A DNA stretch of 33,193 nt, taken from assembly GCA_947466085.1 (NCBI GenBank), contig CANIEC010000042.1:1-33193 (forward strand). The letters run 5' to 3'. The translations under genes and the position numbers were made by a program. Numbering within the stretch: the first letter of the stretch is position 1; every line of letters begins with the position of its first letter. The notes beneath the pieces were generated by a model that searched no databases, had not been told where the DNA came from, and saw only the letters and a program-made list of their open reading frames with translations. Shown here piece after piece: positions 1,819-25,120 of this stretch. The stretch comes from Rhodospirillales bacterium. Its GTDB lineage: Bacteria > Pseudomonadota > Alphaproteobacteria > Reyranellales > Reyranellaceae.

Positions 1819-1929
1819 CTTCCCCTTTGCGGGCTCCGCAAAGGGGAAGTGCCCTCGTCCTACGAGGGCGATGGGGTCATGACCCCTCCGTCGCGTACGA
1901 CGCGACACCTCCCCATTTGAATGGGGAGG
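1819..1929 (+). repeat. Palindromic repeat, family C, copy 1
   Basis: A chain of four or five hairpins fills the gap between two convergent genes. A 12-14 bp stem (1819-1832 with 1836-1849) is followed by an 8-bp stem (1851-1858 with 1862-1869, loop cct). Next come a ggggtcatgacccc palindrome (1873-1886), a 7-bp stem (gtcgcgt/acgcgac) and a 10-bp stem (1908-1917 with 1920-1929). A second copy lies on the opposite strand at 24569-24691 inside a coding region. The first hairpin could also terminate the stress-protein transcript, but no T-tract follows it. Confidence 0.85.
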
Positions 1930-1975
1930 AACAAGATCGACGCTTGAATTGCCTCGCCCGTCCCCCTAACCCGCC

Positions 1976-8142: not shown

Positions 8143-8267
8143 TGGGTGCACGAATGGAAGTAGTCCCGCCGGCCTACGAAAGAGGCTTGAGTGGCCGTTC
8201 TTTCTTCGGCGCTCCCGGACATCGCGTTGCGTGGCGGCTTGCAATCAAGCCGCGGCCTGACGCTCAC

Positions 8268-14001: not shown

Positions 14002-15141
14002 TCAGACGTAGCCCGGTCCCTCGATGACCGGGTGGGCAATCAGGAACTTCTCGTCGATCTCGACGCCGATGCCGGGCTTGTCGAGCGGGCGGACGTTGCC
14101 GTCCTTGCCGATCTCCCAGGGCGCGCTGCCCAGCTCGTCGCGGAACTTGTTGGCCACCGAAAGGTCGGCCTCGAAGTAGCCGCCATTATCGATCGACGCC
14201 AGGAAGTGGATCGACACGGCGTGATTGAGGCCGGTCATCGAACTGTGCGGATGGATCGGCAGCTTCCACATCGAGGCGGCGGCCGCGATGCGCTGAACCT
14301 CGGTGATGCCGCCGCTCTTGGACAGGTCGGGCTGCAGGATGGTGATGTTGCCATCCTCGATGATCCGGTGGAACTCGAAGCGCGTGTAGTGGTTCTCACC
14401 GGCCGCGAGCGGCGTCACGCCCCAGCCCTTGGCCATCGCGTAGGAGCGGTGGTCGTGAGCCGGAAACGGCTCCTCCAGCCAGGAGATGCCGAGCTCGTCC
14501 ATCGCCGGCATCACGCGCCGCACATCCTCGACCGTATAGCCGGTGTTGGCGTCGGTCAGCAGGACCATGTCGTCGCCGAAGCGCTTGCGCACCGCGGTCA
14601 TGCGCGCGATGTCGTTCTTCACGCTGTCGCCGACCCTGAGCTTCAGTGCCTTGTAGCCCGCCGCGACCATGGGGCCGGCCTCATCGGCTAGCGATTCCGG
14701 CGCCTGGTAACCGAGCGAGATGCCGCCGGCATAGGCCGGCACCGGTTTGTTGGAGCCGCCCAGCAGCTTGTAGAGCGGCCAGCCGACGGCCTTGCCCTTG
14801 ATGTCCCACAGCGCCTGGTCGAGACCGCTCATCGCCATGGCGGTGGCGGCGCCCATGCCGTGGCTGCCGAGCTGGAACTTGTAGATCTTGGCCCAGATGC
14901 CGACCGTGTCGGTCGCATCCATGCCGACCACGAAGCCCTTCAGCGTCGTGTTGATCAGGTGGCCGATGCTGCCGGGCGAGCGCGCATGATGGCTCTCGCC
15001 CCAGCCCACGATCCCATCCTCGGTCGTCACCTTGACCATCACGCAGTCGCGCTTGGTCATGGTGCCGATGCCCAGCGACACCTGCAGCTCCTTGGGCACG
15101 CGATAACTGGTCGGATAGGCCTTTACGTCGACGATTTTCAT
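14002..15141 (-). CDS. Enolase-superfamily enzyme, mandelate racemase/muconate cycloisomerase type (a)
   Basis: Mg-dependent enzyme of 379 residues with an N-terminal capping domain and a beta-barrel. Metal ligands are D197 (LLTDAN), E223 (WLEEP) and E249 (AAGEN), with spacing like mandelate racemase. A His/Asp dyad is visible as D272 (LQPDLSKSGG) and H299 (IHPHSS). The second strand carries K167-L-R169, so arginine replaces the second lysine of the common KxK motif. This points to a dehydratase-like or one-sided acid-base chemistry rather than a two-base racemase. It is last in the minus-strand block, 103 bp after its paralogue at 15245-16384, with a strong hairpin repeat between them. The substrate is probably a hydroxy or sugar acid; this is inference. 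Confidence 0.9.
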   Translation of the reverse strand: MKIVDVKAYPTSYRVPKELQVSLGIGTMTKRDCVMVKVTTEDGIVGWGESHHARSPGSIGHLINTTLKGFVVGMDATDTVGIWAKIYKFQLGSHGMGAATAMAMSGLDQALWDIKGKAVGWPLYKLLGGSNKPVPAYAGGISLGYQAPESLADEAGPMVAAGYKALKLRVGDSVKNDIARMTAVRKRFGDDMVLLTDANTGYTVEDVRRVMPAMDELGISWLEEPFPAHDHRSYAMAKGWGVTPLAAGENHYTRFEFHRIIEDGNITILQPDLSKSGGITEVQRIAAAASMWKLPIHPHSSMTGLNHAVSIHFLASIDNGGYFEADLSVANKFRDELGSAPWEIGKDGNVRPLDKPGIGVEIDEKFLIAHPVIEGPGYV

Positions 15142-15147
15142 ATCTTT

Positions 15148-15218
15148 GTCATCCCGAGCGAAGCGAGGGACCTTTGATCAACGGCCGCACAAGGGTCCCT
15201 CGCTCCGCTCGGGATGAC
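15148..15218 (+). repeat. Palindromic repeat, family B, copy 1
   Basis: A 25-bp inverted repeat (15148-15172 with 15194-15218; arms begin gtcatcccgagcg and end cgctcgggatgac) has one mismatch and a 21-nt loop. It lies between the two enolase-family genes. A related, less perfect copy is at 21817-21883 between two ABC transporter genes. In transcripts it would form a long hairpin capable of modulating read-through or stabilising upstream mRNA. Confidence 0.85.
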
Positions 15219-15244
15219 AATGTGCGGCGACTCTCGGTCGTGCG

Positions 15245-16384
15245 TCACGCCACCTTGTATTTCTTCAGGACCTCGCGATCGATCTCGATGCCGAGGCCAG
15301 GTCCCGTCGGAACCTTGACGATGCCCTTCTTCTGCTCGATCGGCTCCTGCGCCAGGTGATCGCGCAGCGGGTTGGGCGTCTGCTCGAACTCGAGCATCGG
15401 CGGCATCGGGCGGAAGGCCGGCGGCTGGTCCGGCAGGGCGGCGAGGAACTGCACCGTGGCCGCGAGGCCGATGGCCGAGCCCCAGGCATGCGGCACGCAC
15501 TCGACGCCGAAGGCCGAGGCGAGTGTCGCGATCTTGCGGCATTCCGAGAAGCCGCCGGCCGCGCAGAGGTCGGGCTGCACGATGTCCATCGCCTTCCTCG
15601 CGATGACGTCGCGGAAACCCCAGCGGGTGAAATCGTTCTCGCCGCCGGCCACCGCCATGTCGAGCGCGCGCGTCACTTCGATGTAGCCGTCATGATCCTC
15701 GGGGCTGATCGGCTCCTCGAACCACAGTATGTCCTGTTCCTCCAGCATGCGGCCGAGCTTGATGGCATTGGGGACCGAGAAGCAGTGGTTGGCGTCGACG
15801 GCGAGCTTCACGTCCGGCCCGATCGCCTCGCGCACCGCGGTGACCCGCTTCGCATCGAGCTTCAGGTCGCCCAGGCCGATCTTCATCTTGATCGCCTGGA
15901 AGCCGGCGTGCTTGAACTCCAGCGCCTCCTCGACGGCTTCCTCGATCAGGCGATTCATGTCGATGAAGTAGAGCCCGGTTGCGTAAGGAATCACCTCGGT
16001 GCGATAGGCGCCGCCGATCAGCTTATGCACCGGCTTGTTCACGGCGCGGCCCATGATGTCCCACAGCGCGATGTCGATGCCGGAGATGGCCGAGATCGCC
16101 ATGCCGGTCGTGCCGTAATCCTTGATCCTGTTGTAGAGGTCTTCCCAGATCGCCTCGACGTCGAACGGATCGCGGCCGATCACGCGCGCCTTGTACTGCG
16201 TCTCGACGAAGGTCTTGGCGACGGCGGCAGGACCGTAGCACTCGCCCCAGCCGGTGATGCCCTCGTCGGTCGAGATCTCGACCAGGCAGGTCGAGCGCGT
16301 GCCGTAGACCCAGCCGCGCGCCGAGACGAACGGCTTGTCGACCTTGCAGCTCAGGATGTGGCAGACGACGTCCGTCACCTTCAT
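15245..16384 (-). CDS. Enolase-superfamily enzyme, mandelate racemase type (b)
   Basis: Second 379-residue enolase-superfamily enzyme with the full mandelate-racemase-like set. It has K166-M-K168 (AIKMKIG), metal ligands D197 (VDAN), E223 (WFEEP) and E249 (AGGEN), and the dyad D272 (VQPDL) and H299 (VPHAWGS). These numbers are within two residues of those in mandelate racemase (K166, D195, E221, E247, D270, H297). The N-terminus is MKVTDVVCHILSCKV, with GGAGGAAAC before the ATG. It is 24 bp downstream of hyuA, so it belongs to the transporter-hyuA operon. Candidate activities are cycloisomerase, racemase or acid-sugar dehydratase. It is a distant paralogue of the neighbouring enolase-family gene, with which it shares the metal-site layout but not the KxK motif. 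Confidence 0.9.
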   Translation of the reverse strand: MKVTDVVCHILSCKVDKPFVSARGWVYGTRSTCLVEISTDEGITGWGECYGPAAVAKTFVETQYKARVIGRDPFDVEAIWEDLYNRIKDYGTTGMAISAISGIDIALWDIMGRAVNKPVHKLIGGAYRTEVIPYATGLYFIDMNRLIEEAVEEALEFKHAGFQAIKMKIGLGDLKLDAKRVTAVREAIGPDVKLAVDANHCFSVPNAIKLGRMLEEQDILWFEEPISPEDHDGYIEVTRALDMAVAGGENDFTRWGFRDVIARKAMDIVQPDLCAAGGFSECRKIATLASAFGVECVPHAWGSAIGLAATVQFLAALPDQPPAFRPMPPMLEFEQTPNPLRDHLAQEPIEQKKGIVKVPTGPGLGIEIDREVLKKYKVA

Positions 16385-19921: not shown

Positions 19922-21792
19922 GCCCGCTGCTCCCGCCAGCGCGCGACCAGCGCCTTCAGGCCGCCCACGAGTCCCTGCGGGAACAGCAGCACGATCAGCA
20001 GGATCACGCCGCCCATGACGGCGCGCCAGAATTCGGTGTTGCGGGCCACGACGTCGCGCAGCCAGGTGAAGATCGCCGCGCCGACCACCGGGCCGGTCAG
20101 GGTTTCGACGCCGCCCAGCAGCACCATGATGAGCCCGTCGGTCGATTGCGCGATCGAGATGCTGGAGGGCGAGATGCTGCCCTTGGAGAAGGCGTAGACC
20201 GCGCCGGCGAGGCCGGCCAGCGCGCCGACCAGCACGAAGGCCGCCCATTGGAAGCCGCGAAGGTCGATGCCGATCGCCTCGGCACGCAGTGGTGAATCGC
20301 GCCCGGCCCGCAGGGCATAGCCGAAGGGAGAGAACAGTACGCGCCACAGGAAGACGATGCCGGCGCCGCACAGGACGAGCGCCAGATAGTAGTAGGTGGT
20401 CTTGTCGGCGAGCCAAGGCGACGGCCAGACGCCGAACACGCCGTTGCTGCCGCCAGTGACCGAATCCCACTGGAAGACGATCGACCAGCTGATCTGCGCA
20501 AACGCGAGCGTCAGCATGGCGAGATAGACGCCCGACAGGCGGACGCAGAACCAGCCGTAGACGATGGCGAACAGGCCGGCGACCAGAGGGGCCAGCAGGA
20601 GCGCGGCTTCCATTGGCAGGCCGAAGCGCTTCATCAGCAGGCCCGCCGCATAGGCGCCGATGCCGAAATAGGCGGCGTGGCCGAACGAGACCATCCCAGC
20701 CGGCCCCATGATGAAATGGAGCGAGACGGAGAACAGCGCGAAGCAGACGATGTCGGTCAGCAGGATCGTGGTGTAGCGATCGGCGAACAGCGGCACGAGG
20801 GCGAGCAACGCCAGCCAGACCAGTGCGAAGGTCCAGGACGGCACCTGCAATCGCGGCGCCGGTTCGGCCGCCCGCTGCGCGGCCTGCGGCTTGCCCAGCA
20901 GCCCGTAGGGCCGCACGACCAGCACCAACGCCATGATCAGGAATTCGACCACCAGGGTGAGCTTGGAGAAGGACACCTCGAAGCCAAACCAGGTCACCGT
21001 ACCGATGCCAATGCAGAAGGCCTTGGCGACGCCGATGATGATGGCGGCCAGGAAGGCGCCGCCGATGCTGCCCAGCCCGCCCACCACCGTGACCACGAAG
21101 GCATCGGCGATGATGGCGAGGTCGAGTTCGAGATTGGCGGGCTCGCGCGGGATCTGCAGCGCGCCGCCCAGCCCTGCCAAGACGGAGCCCACGAAGAACA
21201 CCGAGGTGAAGAGCTTGGCCTGGTCGACGCCCAGCGCGCCCACCATCTCGCGGTCCTGGGTCGCGGCGCGCACCAGCGCGCCCCAGCGCGTGCGCGTCAG
21301 CAGCAGCCAGACGAGGCCCAACACGACCGGGCCGATGGCGATCAGCACCAGATCGTAGGCCGGGATGCGCCGCCCCATGATCTCGACCGCCATCGACAGG
21401 CCGGGCGCACGCGGCCCGACCAGATCCTCGGCGCCCCAGGTGAAGAGCGCGATGTCCTTGATCACCAGCACGACCGCGAAGGTCGCCAGCAGCTGGAACA
21501 GCTCCGGCGCGCGATAGATGCGCCGCAGCACCAGCACCTCGATCAGGACGCCGACCAACCCGACCGCAAGGGCGGCCAGCACGACGGCGCCCCAGAAGCC
21601 CAGGGGTGTGCGGCCAAAGAACTCGATCAGCGAGTAGGCGCCGTAGAGTCCCAGCATGTAGAGCGAACCGTGCGCGAAGTTCACGATCCGCGTGACGCCG
21701 AAGATCAGCGACAGGCCGGCCGACACCAGGAACAGCGACGCGGCCGCCGCCAGCCCGTTCAGCAGCTGGATGAGGATGGAAGCGAGAGTCAC
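19918..21792 (-). CDS. Fused LivH-LivM branched-chain-type ABC permease
   Basis: Inner-membrane permease of 624 residues that fuses the two usually separate permeases. Residues 1 to about 300 are LivH-like (MTLASILIQLLNGLAAAASL, FGVTRIVNFAHGSLYMLG, VVGGLGSIGGAFLAA). A short polar linker (KPQAAQRAAEPAPR, about 301-314) follows. Residues about 319 to 624 are LivM-like (FALFSVSLHFIMGPAGMVSFGHAAYFGIGAYAAG, and VLLGGVETLTGPVVGAAIF). Both halves have several transmembrane segments. Standalone LivH and LivM are near 290-320 residues each, so the sum fits a fusion. A palindromic hairpin repeat separates it from the binding-protein gene upstream. Such fusions are known in several alphaproteobacteria. 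Confidence 0.93.
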   Translation of the reverse strand: MTLASILIQLLNGLAAAASLFLVSAGLSLIFGVTRIVNFAHGSLYMLGLYGAYSLIEFFGRTPLGFWGAVVLAALAVGLVGVLIEVLVLRRIYRAPELFQLLATFAVVLVIKDIALFTWGAEDLVGPRAPGLSMAVEIMGRRIPAYDLVLIAIGPVVLGLVWLLLTRTRWGALVRAATQDREMVGALGVDQAKLFTSVFFVGSVLAGLGGALQIPREPANLELDLAIIADAFVVTVVGGLGSIGGAFLAAIIIGVAKAFCIGIGTVTWFGFEVSFSKLTLVVEFLIMALVLVVRPYGLLGKPQAAQRAAEPAPRLQVPSWTFALVWLALLALVPLFADRYTTILLTDIVCFALFSVSLHFIMGPAGMVSFGHAAYFGIGAYAAGLLMKRFGLPMEAALLLAPLVAGLFAIVYGWFCVRLSGVYLAMLTLAFAQISWSIVFQWDSVTGGSNGVFGVWPSPWLADKTTYYYLALVLCGAGIVFLWRVLFSPFGYALRAGRDSPLRAEAIGIDLRGFQWAAFVLVGALAGLAGAVYAFSKGSISPSSISIAQSTDGLIMVLLGGVETLTGPVVGAAIFTWLRDVVARNTEFWRAVMGGVILLIVLLFPQGLVGGLKALVARWREQRA

Positions 21793-21816
21793 GCGATGGC
21801 CGAGGAGAGAGAAGGT

Positions 21817-21883
21817 GTCATCCCGAGCACAGCGAGGGACCTTTCACGATGCCTCAAAGGTCCCTCACTTCGTTCGGGATGAC
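21817..21883 (+). repeat. Palindromic repeat, family B, copy 2
   Basis: Arms of 28 nt (21817-21844 and 21856-21883; gtcatcccgagc and gttcgggatgac at the ends) pair with about four mismatches, some of them G-U in RNA. The loop is 11 nt. It fills the 101-bp gap between the binding-protein gene and the permease gene. The position suggests a role in setting a high binding-protein to permease ratio by 3'-end stabilisation or attenuation. Confidence 0.8.
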
Positions 21884-23556: not shown

Positions 23557-24140
23557 CGTTGCCCGTCCCCCAACTTGATCCCGTCCGGCGTCAGTCCGCC
23601 GACCCTGGCATGGGGGCGGCCGCCGATCGCGGCGGCGACGATGAACACGATCTCGTCCGGACGCGGACCGTCGGGTACGCAGAACTCGATGGCATCGAAA
23701 TGGCTGCGCACATAGGCCGCCGTCACGTGATGCAGCGGAATGTCGATGCGCGCGCCGGCCGCCGCGACCTTCACGGTCGAGGGCACGATCGACTTGGCGC
23801 CGCCCATCGCATGGCGGATGCCGAAGCCACTGGGCTGATGCCACAGGGCGGCATGTTCCAGCTCGCCGTTCAGTCCGACGATGGCTCCCTTGCCATAGGC
23901 CTCCAACTCGGAGCCCTGGGCGCCCAGGATCTTCATCACGCGTTCCGTGAGATCGACCGCGAGCGGTTCCAGCGCCTTCATCATCGGCTGGATGTCGGCC
24001 ACGTGCCGGCCGGCATAGGGATTGGCAATGACGCCACCGACCACGGCCTTGGTCACCGGCCGCGCCAGCACCGGTCCGAAGTCGTGCAGCGTCTCCTCGA
24101 CCATCGCCACGTACTTCCGCACTTTCACCAGATCGCTCAT
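23553..24140 (-). CDS. Amino acid synthesis family protein (DUF1185, AA_synth)
   Basis: Protein of 195 residues similar to the AA_synth/DUF1185 family, whose biochemical role is not well established despite its name. Typical phrases are RKYVAMVEETLHDFGPVLARPVTKAVVGGVIANPYAGR, LGAQGSELEAYGKGAIVGLNGELEHAALWH, and GGAKSIVPSTVKVAAAGARIDIPLHH. ATG 24140 has GGAGG about 5 nt upstream and fits the family start; the frame from 24188 extends into the preceding gene. It overlaps both neighbours by 4 nt. Its company with a 6-hydroxynicotinate-reductase homologue and a Mo hydroxylase points to ring-compound catabolism rather than amino-acid synthesis. This is contextual inference. Confidence 0.85.
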   Translation of the reverse strand: MSDLVKVRKYVAMVEETLHDFGPVLARPVTKAVVGGVIANPYAGRHVADIQPMMKALEPLAVDLTERVMKILGAQGSELEAYGKGAIVGLNGELEHAALWHQPSGFGIRHAMGGAKSIVPSTVKVAAAGARIDIPLHHVTAAYVRSHFDAIEFCVPDGPRPDEIVFIVAAAIGGRPHARVGGLTPDGIKLGDGQR

Positions 24141-25120
24141 CCCGCCTCCGACAGAGCAAGCGGCGTGCCGCCTGTCTCGATTCGCCATTGTCCTTCGAGC
24201 GACAGCGCCGCGCTGTCGATCAGGCCGCAGAGCCTCAGCCGCCGCGCTTCCGCCGCGCCGCGGTCGAGGGCTGCCGCCACGATCTCCGGCGGCAAGTCAC
24301 CGACCGCCACCGTCACGAGCAGCTCGCCGAGATCGCTGTCCGGATCGAGCGAGCACGCAGGCCGGCGTTCGATGGAAGAATGGTCGGCATTCACTGCGTT
24401 GGCGATCATGGTCGCCGCAGCATCGGCGGCGGCCGCCGTGGCGGCCAGCACGGTCACCGAATCGGCAATGCCCAACGAGAAGGAGCGCCCGCCCCGGCCT
24501 GAGGTCGCTATCCCGCGGACCGGCCGCTCGTGCGTGAGCAAGGCCACGCCGTCCAATGTCTTGTGCCCTTCCTCCCCATTCAAATGGGGAGGTGTCGACG
24601 TCATCGTCGACGGAGGGGTCATACTGTGCTGCGCCGCGCATGACCCCATCGCCCCGTATGACGGGGCACTTCCCCATCTGAATGGGGAAGAGACTGAACC
24701 CGCGACGATGCCGGCGCGCAGCGAATGCCCGGGCGTCAGATGGATCGCGATGTCGCCGCCGTCGTTCACATAGGCCTTGGTGAGCGTGCGGCCCCGCACC
24801 AGCGCCTGCAGCATCTCGTCGGCGACGGCGCCGGCAACGGCGGCCATCGGCGTGATGTAGCGGGCGCGATGCGGCCACACGGCTTCGGCCATGCGCCGCG
24901 CCACCGGCGCCTGCAGCAGGGGATAGGCCTCCCCGACCGGCCGACGCAGTACCAGAAGTTCGCCGACCAGGGTCGGCAGGACGTCGCCGAAGCGATCGAT
25001 CGCTTGCGCATAGGCAAGCTCGACCTCGGCCTGCACGCCGAACGCCTCGACGATGAGATCGATCGGACCGTGCTGCAGATGCAGCCGTCCGTCATCGAGG
25101 CGGGCGGCGACGGCGCTCAT
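24137..25120 (-). CDS. UPF0280 family protein (ApbE-superfamily) with in-frame palindromic insert
   Basis: Protein of 327 residues of the UPF0280 family, classed with ApbE-like proteins. Conserved stretches are TKAYVNDGGDIAIHLTPG (about 114-131), RAGIVAG and GIATSGRGGRSFSLGIADSVTVLAATAAAADAAATMIANAVN (about 203-244). Residues 144 to about 185, between the RAGIVAG and GIATSG blocks, are encoded by a palindromic repeat (24569-24691). This segment is rich in Pro, Ser and Thr and unlike the flanks (for example SMTPPSTMTSTPPHLNGEEG). Removing it leaves about 285 residues, the length I expect for the family. ATG 25120 overlaps the upstream stop (ATGA). UPF0280 function is unknown. As an ApbE relative next to a reductase whose homologue carries covalent flavin, it could be a flavin transferase. 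Whether the insert is tolerated is unknown. Confidence 0.85.
   Translation of the reverse strand: MSAVAARLDDGRLHLQHGPIDLIVEAFGVQAEVELAYAQAIDRFGDVLPTLVGELLVLRRPVGEAYPLLQAPVARRMAEAVWPHRARYITPMAAVAGAVADEMLQALVRGRTLTKAYVNDGGDIAIHLTPGHSLRAGIVAGSVSSPFRWGSAPSYGAMGSCAAQHSMTPPSTMTSTPPHLNGEEGHKTLDGVALLTHERPVRGIATSGRGGRSFSLGIADSVTVLAATAAAADAAATMIANAVNADHSSIERRPACSLDPDSDLGELLVTVAVGDLPPEIVAAALDRGAAEARRLRLCGLIDSAALSLEGQWRIETGGTPLALSEAG
24569..24691 (-). repeat. Palindromic repeat, family C, copy 2, in frame inside UPF0280
   Basis: The element reads on the minus strand in the same order as copy 1. It starts with an outer hairpin (cttccccatt/gatggggaag), then gccccgt/acggggc, then ggggtca/tgacccc with a longer loop, then gtcgacg/cgtcgac, then cctccccattt/aaatggggagg. 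It spans about 123 nt, a multiple of three, and has no stop codon in the host frame. Compared with copy 1, stem bases differ but pairing is kept. Confidence 0.85.

What the first reader, a model, noticed from the sequence alone, without database searches (positions are those of the whole stretch)
24566..24691. Palindromic repeat captured in frame inside a UPF0280 gene
A repeat of about 123 bp, present also as a non-coding copy at 1819-1929, interrupts the UPF0280 reading frame without a stop or frameshift. It encodes residues about 144-185 (Pro/Ser/Thr-rich) between two conserved blocks, RAGIVAG and GIATSGRGG. This resembles the Rickettsia palindromic elements that insert into genes and are translated, but here in a probably free-living, high-GC organism. 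Either the protein tolerates a new surface loop, or the gene is non-functional despite the intact frame. It may represent a protein-coding capable repeat family.
Basis: partly seen in the sequence, partly recalled or inferred. Interest (0 to 1): 0.78.

Follow-up and report, generated by a model that had tools for sequence, protein, structure and literature searches.

The report
Palindromic repeat read as protein loop
In a likely Reyranella bacterium, a repeated hairpin-forming DNA element sits in frame inside a conserved gene, where it would add a predicted floppy 46-residue loop to the protein; copies of the same repeat also lie at a boundary where two neighbouring genes have become one open reading frame, so such repeats are a likely source of new protein loops and gene fusions.

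Summary
The UPF0280 gene (24137-25120, minus strand) carries a 138-bp in-frame insert (24563-24700). The insert belongs to a composite palindromic repeat family with 60 copies read in this draft genome (57 of 61 sampled genomes of the genus match; 1 of 142 sampled across the class, the window's own). Orthologues with a clean empty site confirm insertion; 31 of 120 listed homologues carry it, net 23-67 residues. Flanks are under purifying selection (dN/dS 0.09-0.24). AlphaFold gives a confident fold in which the insert is disordered, at a turn between two strands. Elsewhere the family avoids coding sequence: of 110 copies in two genomes, 59 lie between convergent genes, 0 between divergent ones, 4 in frame inside open frames (the same two loci). 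The second locus joins two CaiB/BaiF genes that overlap by ATGA in relatives; 13 of 13 junctions with a significant element are open, 0 of 29 separate junctions has one. Insert distribution is patchy, and some inserts resemble particular genomic copies, so exchange or repeated insertion is likely. Translation is not shown, and the peptide shows no protein-level constraint. It works like Rickettsia palindromic elements: a new variant of a known kind.

The parts
24137..25120 (-). UPF0280 (DUF375, ApbE-like) gene, 327 codons plus stop, with in-frame insert
   Evidence: NCBIfam NF003322 357 bits over cut-off 290; homologues named UPF0280 family; best solved relative 2o34
24563..24700 (-). net insertion, codons 141-186 (46 codons), absent from empty orthologues
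   Evidence: site alignment of DNA and protein
24566..24693 (-). composite palindromic repeat copy
   Evidence: model R1, 136 bits
24571..24592 (.). terminal hairpin, 10-bp arms, 2-nt loop
   Evidence: inverted repeat I4
24669..24690 (.). other terminal hairpin, 9-bp arms, 4-nt loop
   Evidence: inverted repeat I6
24599..24663 (.). inner stems and variable loop
   Evidence: inverted repeat I2; consensus fold of 27 other copies
25117..25120 (-). ATGA overlap of the upstream stop with the UPF0280 start
   Evidence: sequence
24137..24140 (-). ATGA overlap of the UPF0280 stop with the downstream start
   Evidence: sequence
1819..1934 (+). second, divergent, non-coding copy of the family

Best explanation
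A copy of a genus-wide composite palindromic repeat sits in frame between codon 140 and the former codon 141 of the UPF0280 gene, adding 46 codons that would be translated as a predicted disordered loop at the turn between two strands, and it is likely kept because this site tolerates any open, frame-preserving version of the repeat. The repeat looks like a non-autonomous REP/MITE-type element that mostly persists beside the 3' ends of genes (location shown; mobility inferred from empty and filled sites). Copies inside coding sequence are rare, and those seen leave the frame open, at two host loci: inside UPF0280 and at the boundary of two CaiB/BaiF genes, where the element accompanies loss of the ATGA overlap and fusion into one frame (shown in DNA; causation inferred). 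The UPF0280 slot is probably refreshed by gene conversion from genomic copies or refilled by repeated insertion (inferred). Selection acts on the host domains (shown by dN/dS) and presumably on keeping the frame (inferred), not measurably on the peptide. The mobilising enzyme is unidentified.
For: Empty and filled orthologues at one exact site. 60 copies read in G000 and 50 in G066, 59 convergent, 0 divergent, 4 in frame, although only 23 of 300 copy-frames in G066 are both open and a multiple of three long. Flank dN/dS 0.09-0.24 in 6 of 6 pairs. Confident AlphaFold model (pLDDT 84.3) with residues 142-187 under 50 between strands 133-139 and 190-196. Net lengths of 13 different values, 23-67 residues. 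CaiB/BaiF: 16 of 45 read junctions fused, 29 separate; element significant in 13 of 16 fused and 0 of 29 separate. Exchange: insert dS 0.03-0.16 against 0.21-0.81 in flanks; G066 insert nearest to an intergenic G000 copy at 96%; first half of the G034 insert is a second repeat family, 99% identical to one inside a composite G000 copy.
Against: No transcript or peptide evidence. The insert is not monophyletic on the flank tree: 13 changes, at least 4 forced (quick method), so one ancestral capture is not shown. Element trees are poorly resolved, and dS inside the insert rests on 43-44 codons. Protein collections cannot show frame-broken inserts, so only the 5 genomes read as DNA are unbiased. 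No target-site duplication was recognised. Three fused junctions (G068, G008, G065) have no significant element.
Confidence: 0.8

Rival explanations
1. The gene is inactivated by the insert and the open frame is a coincidence on the way to decay.
For: Insert dN/dS near or above 1; patchy presence.
Against: Flanks on both sides of the insert keep dN/dS 0.09-0.24 in 6 of 6 pairs of insert-bearing genes; the frame is open in 5 of 5 genomes read as DNA; 13 different in-frame lengths.
Confidence: 0.06
2. The loop has been taken into service: its peptide has a selected function such as partner binding.
For: Retention in many lineages; the segments SSPF.WG and PPHLNGE recur.
Against: The recurring segments are those encoded by the conserved DNA hairpins; insert dN/dS 0.83-2.99; length varies from 23 to 67 residues; predicted disordered.
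Confidence: 0.1
3. The element is kept in the gene for its DNA or RNA structure, for example to set mRNA stability or translation within the operon, and translation of it is a by-product.
For: Low dS and conserved hairpins inside the insert; location of the family at 3' ends.
Against: Orthologous operons lack it in 48 of 53 rows; several inserts have lost inner parts (P0030, P0031); only 2 of 42 pairs show changes on both sides.
Confidence: 0.15

Closest known systems
Rickettsia palindromic elements (RPE) and Wolbachia counterparts
   Same: About 100-150 bp palindromic repeats, intergenic and in frame inside conserved genes (PMC10969869 and PMC2229807, passages read).
   Different: Other genus and sequence; here rare inside genes (2 of 60 copies in G000), against nearly half of RPEs as reported in PMC10969869; here also at a two-gene fusion. 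Sequence likeness to RPEs was not tested.
Enterobacterial repeat units RU-1/ERIC, RU-2, RU-3 (PMC2759123, passages read)
   Same: Small mobile sequences with open frames fused in frame; one removed a stop codon and extended a C-terminus.
   Different: That paper found none within conserved domains; here the insert lies within the UPF0280 fold.
CGTC- and GTAG-tagged REPs (PMC3733652, passages read)
   Same: Located mainly between convergent and unidirectional genes; reported inside genes; CGTC REPs mostly in alphaproteobacteria.
   Different: Here 9-10 bp terminal hairpins with 2-4 nt loops in a composite of about 120 bp; CGTC lies inside the element; GTAG in only 2 of 27 copies.
Caulobacter/Brucella CIR repeats (PMC2229807, passages read)
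   Same: Alphaproteobacterial intergenic repeats.
   Different: CIRs expose GANTC and are not found in genes; here GANTC in 2 of 27 aligned copies.

Membership tests
UPF0280/DUF375 (host gene) | family profile over curated cut-off | tested here: met
   NF003322 357 bits, cut-off 290. The local Pfam-A scan gave no family, while homologues carry precomputed PF27030.
UPF0280/DUF375 (host gene) | fold | tested here: met
   Best PDB match 2o34, DUF375, E 9e-10, then ApbE proteins.
RPE | palindromic repeat translated in frame within a conserved gene | tested here: inconclusive
   Palindromic, in frame and open; translation not tested.
RPE | sequence of a Rickettsia RPE family | not tested
   No RPE sequence was compared.
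CGTC REP | CGTC at one end of an 8-9 bp stem with 4-5 nt loop and short tail | tested here: not met
   CGTC is present in 27 of 27 copies but internal; terminal hairpins are 9-10 bp with 2-4 nt loops.
GTAG REP with RAYT | GTAG tag | tested here: not met
   GTAG in 2 of 27 copies.
GTAG REP with RAYT | Y1 transposase (PF01797) in genomes that hold the repeats | tested here: not met
   2 of 4 genomes have a match; none in G066 and G034, both repeat-rich.
CIR | GANTC motif | tested here: not met
   2 of 27 copies.
MITE | terminal inverted repeats | tested here: met
   25-nt inverted arms, 88% complementary.
MITE | target-site duplication and a parent transposon | tested here: inconclusive
   No duplication recognised by eye in the flanks; no parent sought beyond PF01797.

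The most novel reading that the evidence does not exclude
The family is a linker donor: its hairpins encode stop-free, Pro/Ser/Thr-rich segments that have more than once turned an ATGA-overlapping gene pair into a single fusion gene, and that fill one fixed slot in UPF0280 with versions swapped in from genomic copies, so a selfish palindrome repeatedly supplies loops and interdomain linkers.
Probability: 0.4. Interest if true: 0.78.

Novelty: new variant of a known kind. Interest (0 to 1): 0.62.

Why it matters
In-frame palindromic repeats are best known from intracellular Rickettsia and Wolbachia, where weak selection is a ready excuse. Here the same behaviour appears in larger genomes (4-10 Mb in the genus), in host genes under clear purifying selection. 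Many filled and empty orthologues, and a second locus where gene fusion coincides with the element, make it directly testable whether small palindromes are raw material for protein loops and gene fusions, and how such inserts are exchanged.

Tried and rejected
Structure job 1 used a near-uniform alignment (A2) and gave mean pLDDT 45; it was discarded and job 2 with divergent homologues (A3) was used. Rfam gave no match at the gathering threshold. A RAYT as general mobiliser was rejected, since G066 and G034 have no Y1_Tnp match. Intrinsic-terminator function is not supported: 0 of 26 copies have 6 or more T in the 12 nt after one end (one end and one strand checked), and the scan at 1500-2300 gave no terminator-like site on the copy there. 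Long open frames over elements in G017, G015, G031, G008 and G034 were not captures: in four the two flanks code on opposite strands, in G031 the right flank does not look coding. In the hydantoinase A/B junction (L158) a stop lies inside the element, so it is a C-terminal tail and not a fusion. G004 was set aside: runs of N lie in its UPF0280 gene and its CaiB/BaiF junction. A search with the insert peptide found 23 proteins, all UPF0280; it missed 8 of the 31 known carriers and saw only 180-572 aa, so it does not exclude other host genes. Monophyly of the insert was tested and not shown.

Rows dropped: two weak G000 matches (E 3e-4 and 1e-3) and one weak G066 match (5e-4) were left out of the 60 and 50 copies. 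L256 (contig end) and L269-L271 (anchor motif not found) were not read at the CaiB/BaiF junction and are outside the 45; the tree holds 30 loci and not those. The element comparison used 29 of 60 G000 and 49 of 50 G066 copies. The census was repeated with one threshold, whose numbers are given. The empty-empty dN/dS pairs planned were not computed.

Full report
What is there. The UPF0280 gene occupies 24137-25120 on the minus strand (327 aa) and matches NCBIfam NF003322 with 357 bits over a cut-off of 290. The closest named proteins are from Reyranella sp.. Its start overlaps the upstream stop and its stop overlaps the downstream start, both as ATGA. Within it, 24566-24693 is a copy of a repeat with 62 places matched in this 5.17-Mb draft, of which I kept 60. 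Relative to empty orthologues the net insertion is 24563-24700, exactly 46 codons (141-186), after Ala140.

Is it an insertion? Of 53 rows read at the site, 48 have no insert and 5 rows (3 distinct genomes: G000, G027, G029) have one. G066 and G034 add two more genomes. Of 65 genomes of the genus, 60 match the protein at E of 1e-60 or better; 5 have a match that runs through the insert (G034 to its contig end), without stops. Among the 120 listed of 7,999 homologues, P0001-P0031 carry the insert; of the others, P0032-P0059 were shown to be empty in the alignment and the rest are 281 aa long bar one of 291. Net lengths, counted as length minus 281, run from 23 to 67 residues with 13 different values over window plus 31. 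Protein collections cannot show frame-broken copies, so this count is biased towards open frames.

The element. Twenty-seven genomic copies, the UPF0280 copy left out, align with 83% mean column identity. They fold into terminal hairpins, inner stems and a variable loop (consensus -65.8 kcal/mol; 2 of 42 pairs have changes on both sides), so the structure rests on complementarity more than on covariation. The model from them matches 57 of 61 sampled genomes of the genus at E of 1e-6. In 142 genomes sampled from the class it matches only the window's own at 1e-9; that scan used strict filters, and one further genome of the genus in it was also without a match. Rfam has no match in the window.

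Where copies lie. A codon-usage score trained and checked on 15 window genes separates right from wrong frames. With one threshold G000 has 33 copies between convergent genes, 18 between genes in the same direction, 2 in frame within an open frame, 7 unclear and 0 between divergent genes, of 60; G066 has 26, 19, 2, 3 and 0, of 50. Convergent and divergent boundaries are equally frequent on a circular chromosome, so 33 to 0 and 26 to 0 are strong biases. This location pattern is known for REPs (PMC3733652, passages read). Only 23 of 300 copy-frames in G066 are both open and a multiple of three long, so frame preservation is not the default.

Selection. Among the four whole insert-bearing genes (6 pairs) the flanks have dN/dS 0.13-0.24 on the 5' side and 0.09-0.15 on the 3' side. 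The insert has 0.83-2.99, because its dS is low (0.03-0.16 against 0.21-0.81 in the flanks). With 43-44 codons this is noisy. It says that the gene works and that the insert is constrained, or homogenised, as DNA rather than as protein.

Structure. With a diverse alignment AlphaFold gives mean pLDDT 84.3; segments under 50 are 142-187 and the last five residues; the insert lies between strands 133-139 and 190-196. The best solved relative is 2o34, a DUF375 protein, followed by ApbE flavin transferases. The insert therefore enlarges a turn; disorder is predicted, not measured.

History. The flank tree needs at least 13 changes of insert state, and well-supported branches force 4 (quick method, 101 rows). 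P0018 (filled) and P0080 (empty) are 96% identical outside the insert. Window and G027 inserts are 95% identical, including the loop; the G066 insert is closest to an intergenic G000 copy (96%, against 93% to the window insert), and the G029 insert scores highest with a long-variant G000 copy (88% over 144 columns). In G034 the first half of the insert is a second repeat family with 11-24 matches in each of four genomes, 99% identical over 68 bp to the one inside a composite intergenic G000 copy. Exchange with genomic copies, or repeated insertion at one site, explains this better than plain descent, but the element tree has few supported branches.

A second locus. In G000 another copy lies in frame in an 814-codon frame with CoA_transf_3 matches (PF02515); G066 and G029 have the same. 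In relatives the two halves are separate genes. Of 45 junctions read, 16 are fused and 29 separate, the second gene starting at ATGA in 28 and GTGA in 1. The element is significant (E of 4e-7 or better) in 13 fused junctions, weak or unrecognised by the model in 3 (G008, where half an element is visible, G068 and G065), and absent from the 29 separate ones. The tree of 30 loci needs 5 changes of state (6 with G034 counted as separate), 3 of them forced; G087 is fused within an otherwise unfused clade. Among five fused genes (10 pairs) the domains have dN/dS 0.08-0.13 and the linker 0.35-0.91. A database search with the linker listed 25 proteins, all PF02515, 575-779 aa. Whether the element caused each fusion or entered a junction already fused is not shown; its absence from separate junctions favours cause.

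Comparison. It works like RPEs (PMC10969869 and PMC2229807, passages read) and enterobacterial RUs (PMC2759123, passages read); the original RPE papers were not read (one look-up failed). It does not meet defining features of CGTC REPs, GTAG/RAYT REPs and CIRs. Ten paper searches listed no title or abstract start describing this repeat in Reyranella or a palindromic repeat at a two-gene fusion boundary; the library is open-access only and the lists were capped.

Verdict. Observation confirmed and extended: a REP/MITE-like family, read through in frame at two host loci. Translation, the cause of the fusions and the mode of exchange remain to be tested.

Noticed in passing
L237 1634-4075 (G000 C1:46633-49074) and related loci L242-L255, L259, L275: Two CaiB/BaiF CoA-transferase genes, separate in 29 read relatives, form one open frame in 16; in 13 of these a significant copy of the repeat encodes the linker.
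   Followed up: yes
element copies in G000 and G066: Two subtypes follow gene orientation: asymmetric copies are mostly between convergent genes (35 against 6 tandem), symmetric copies mostly between co-directional genes (27 against 5 convergent), Fisher p 2e-9, a post hoc test; copies of unassigned type left out.
   Followed up: partly
L160 and L202, right end of the element: The last bases of some tandem-type copies, GGGGAGG, lie 3 nt before the next ATG and could serve as its ribosome-binding site.
   Followed up: no
L158 1500-1628 (G000 C1:76547-76675): A copy between hydantoinase A and B genes: the A frame runs into the element and stops inside it, giving a repeat-encoded tail.
   Followed up: partly
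L034 177-247; window 8196-8225: A second palindromic repeat family (11-24 matches in each of four genomes) nested in the G034 insert; a 30-bp partial match lies in this window.
   Followed up: partly
window ORFs 15138-15542 (-) and 20677-21882 (+): Translations contain VIPSGARDP..SLASLGMT and VIPSTARDL strings, which I recall as a common palindromic repeat read as peptide in many genomes.
   Followed up: no
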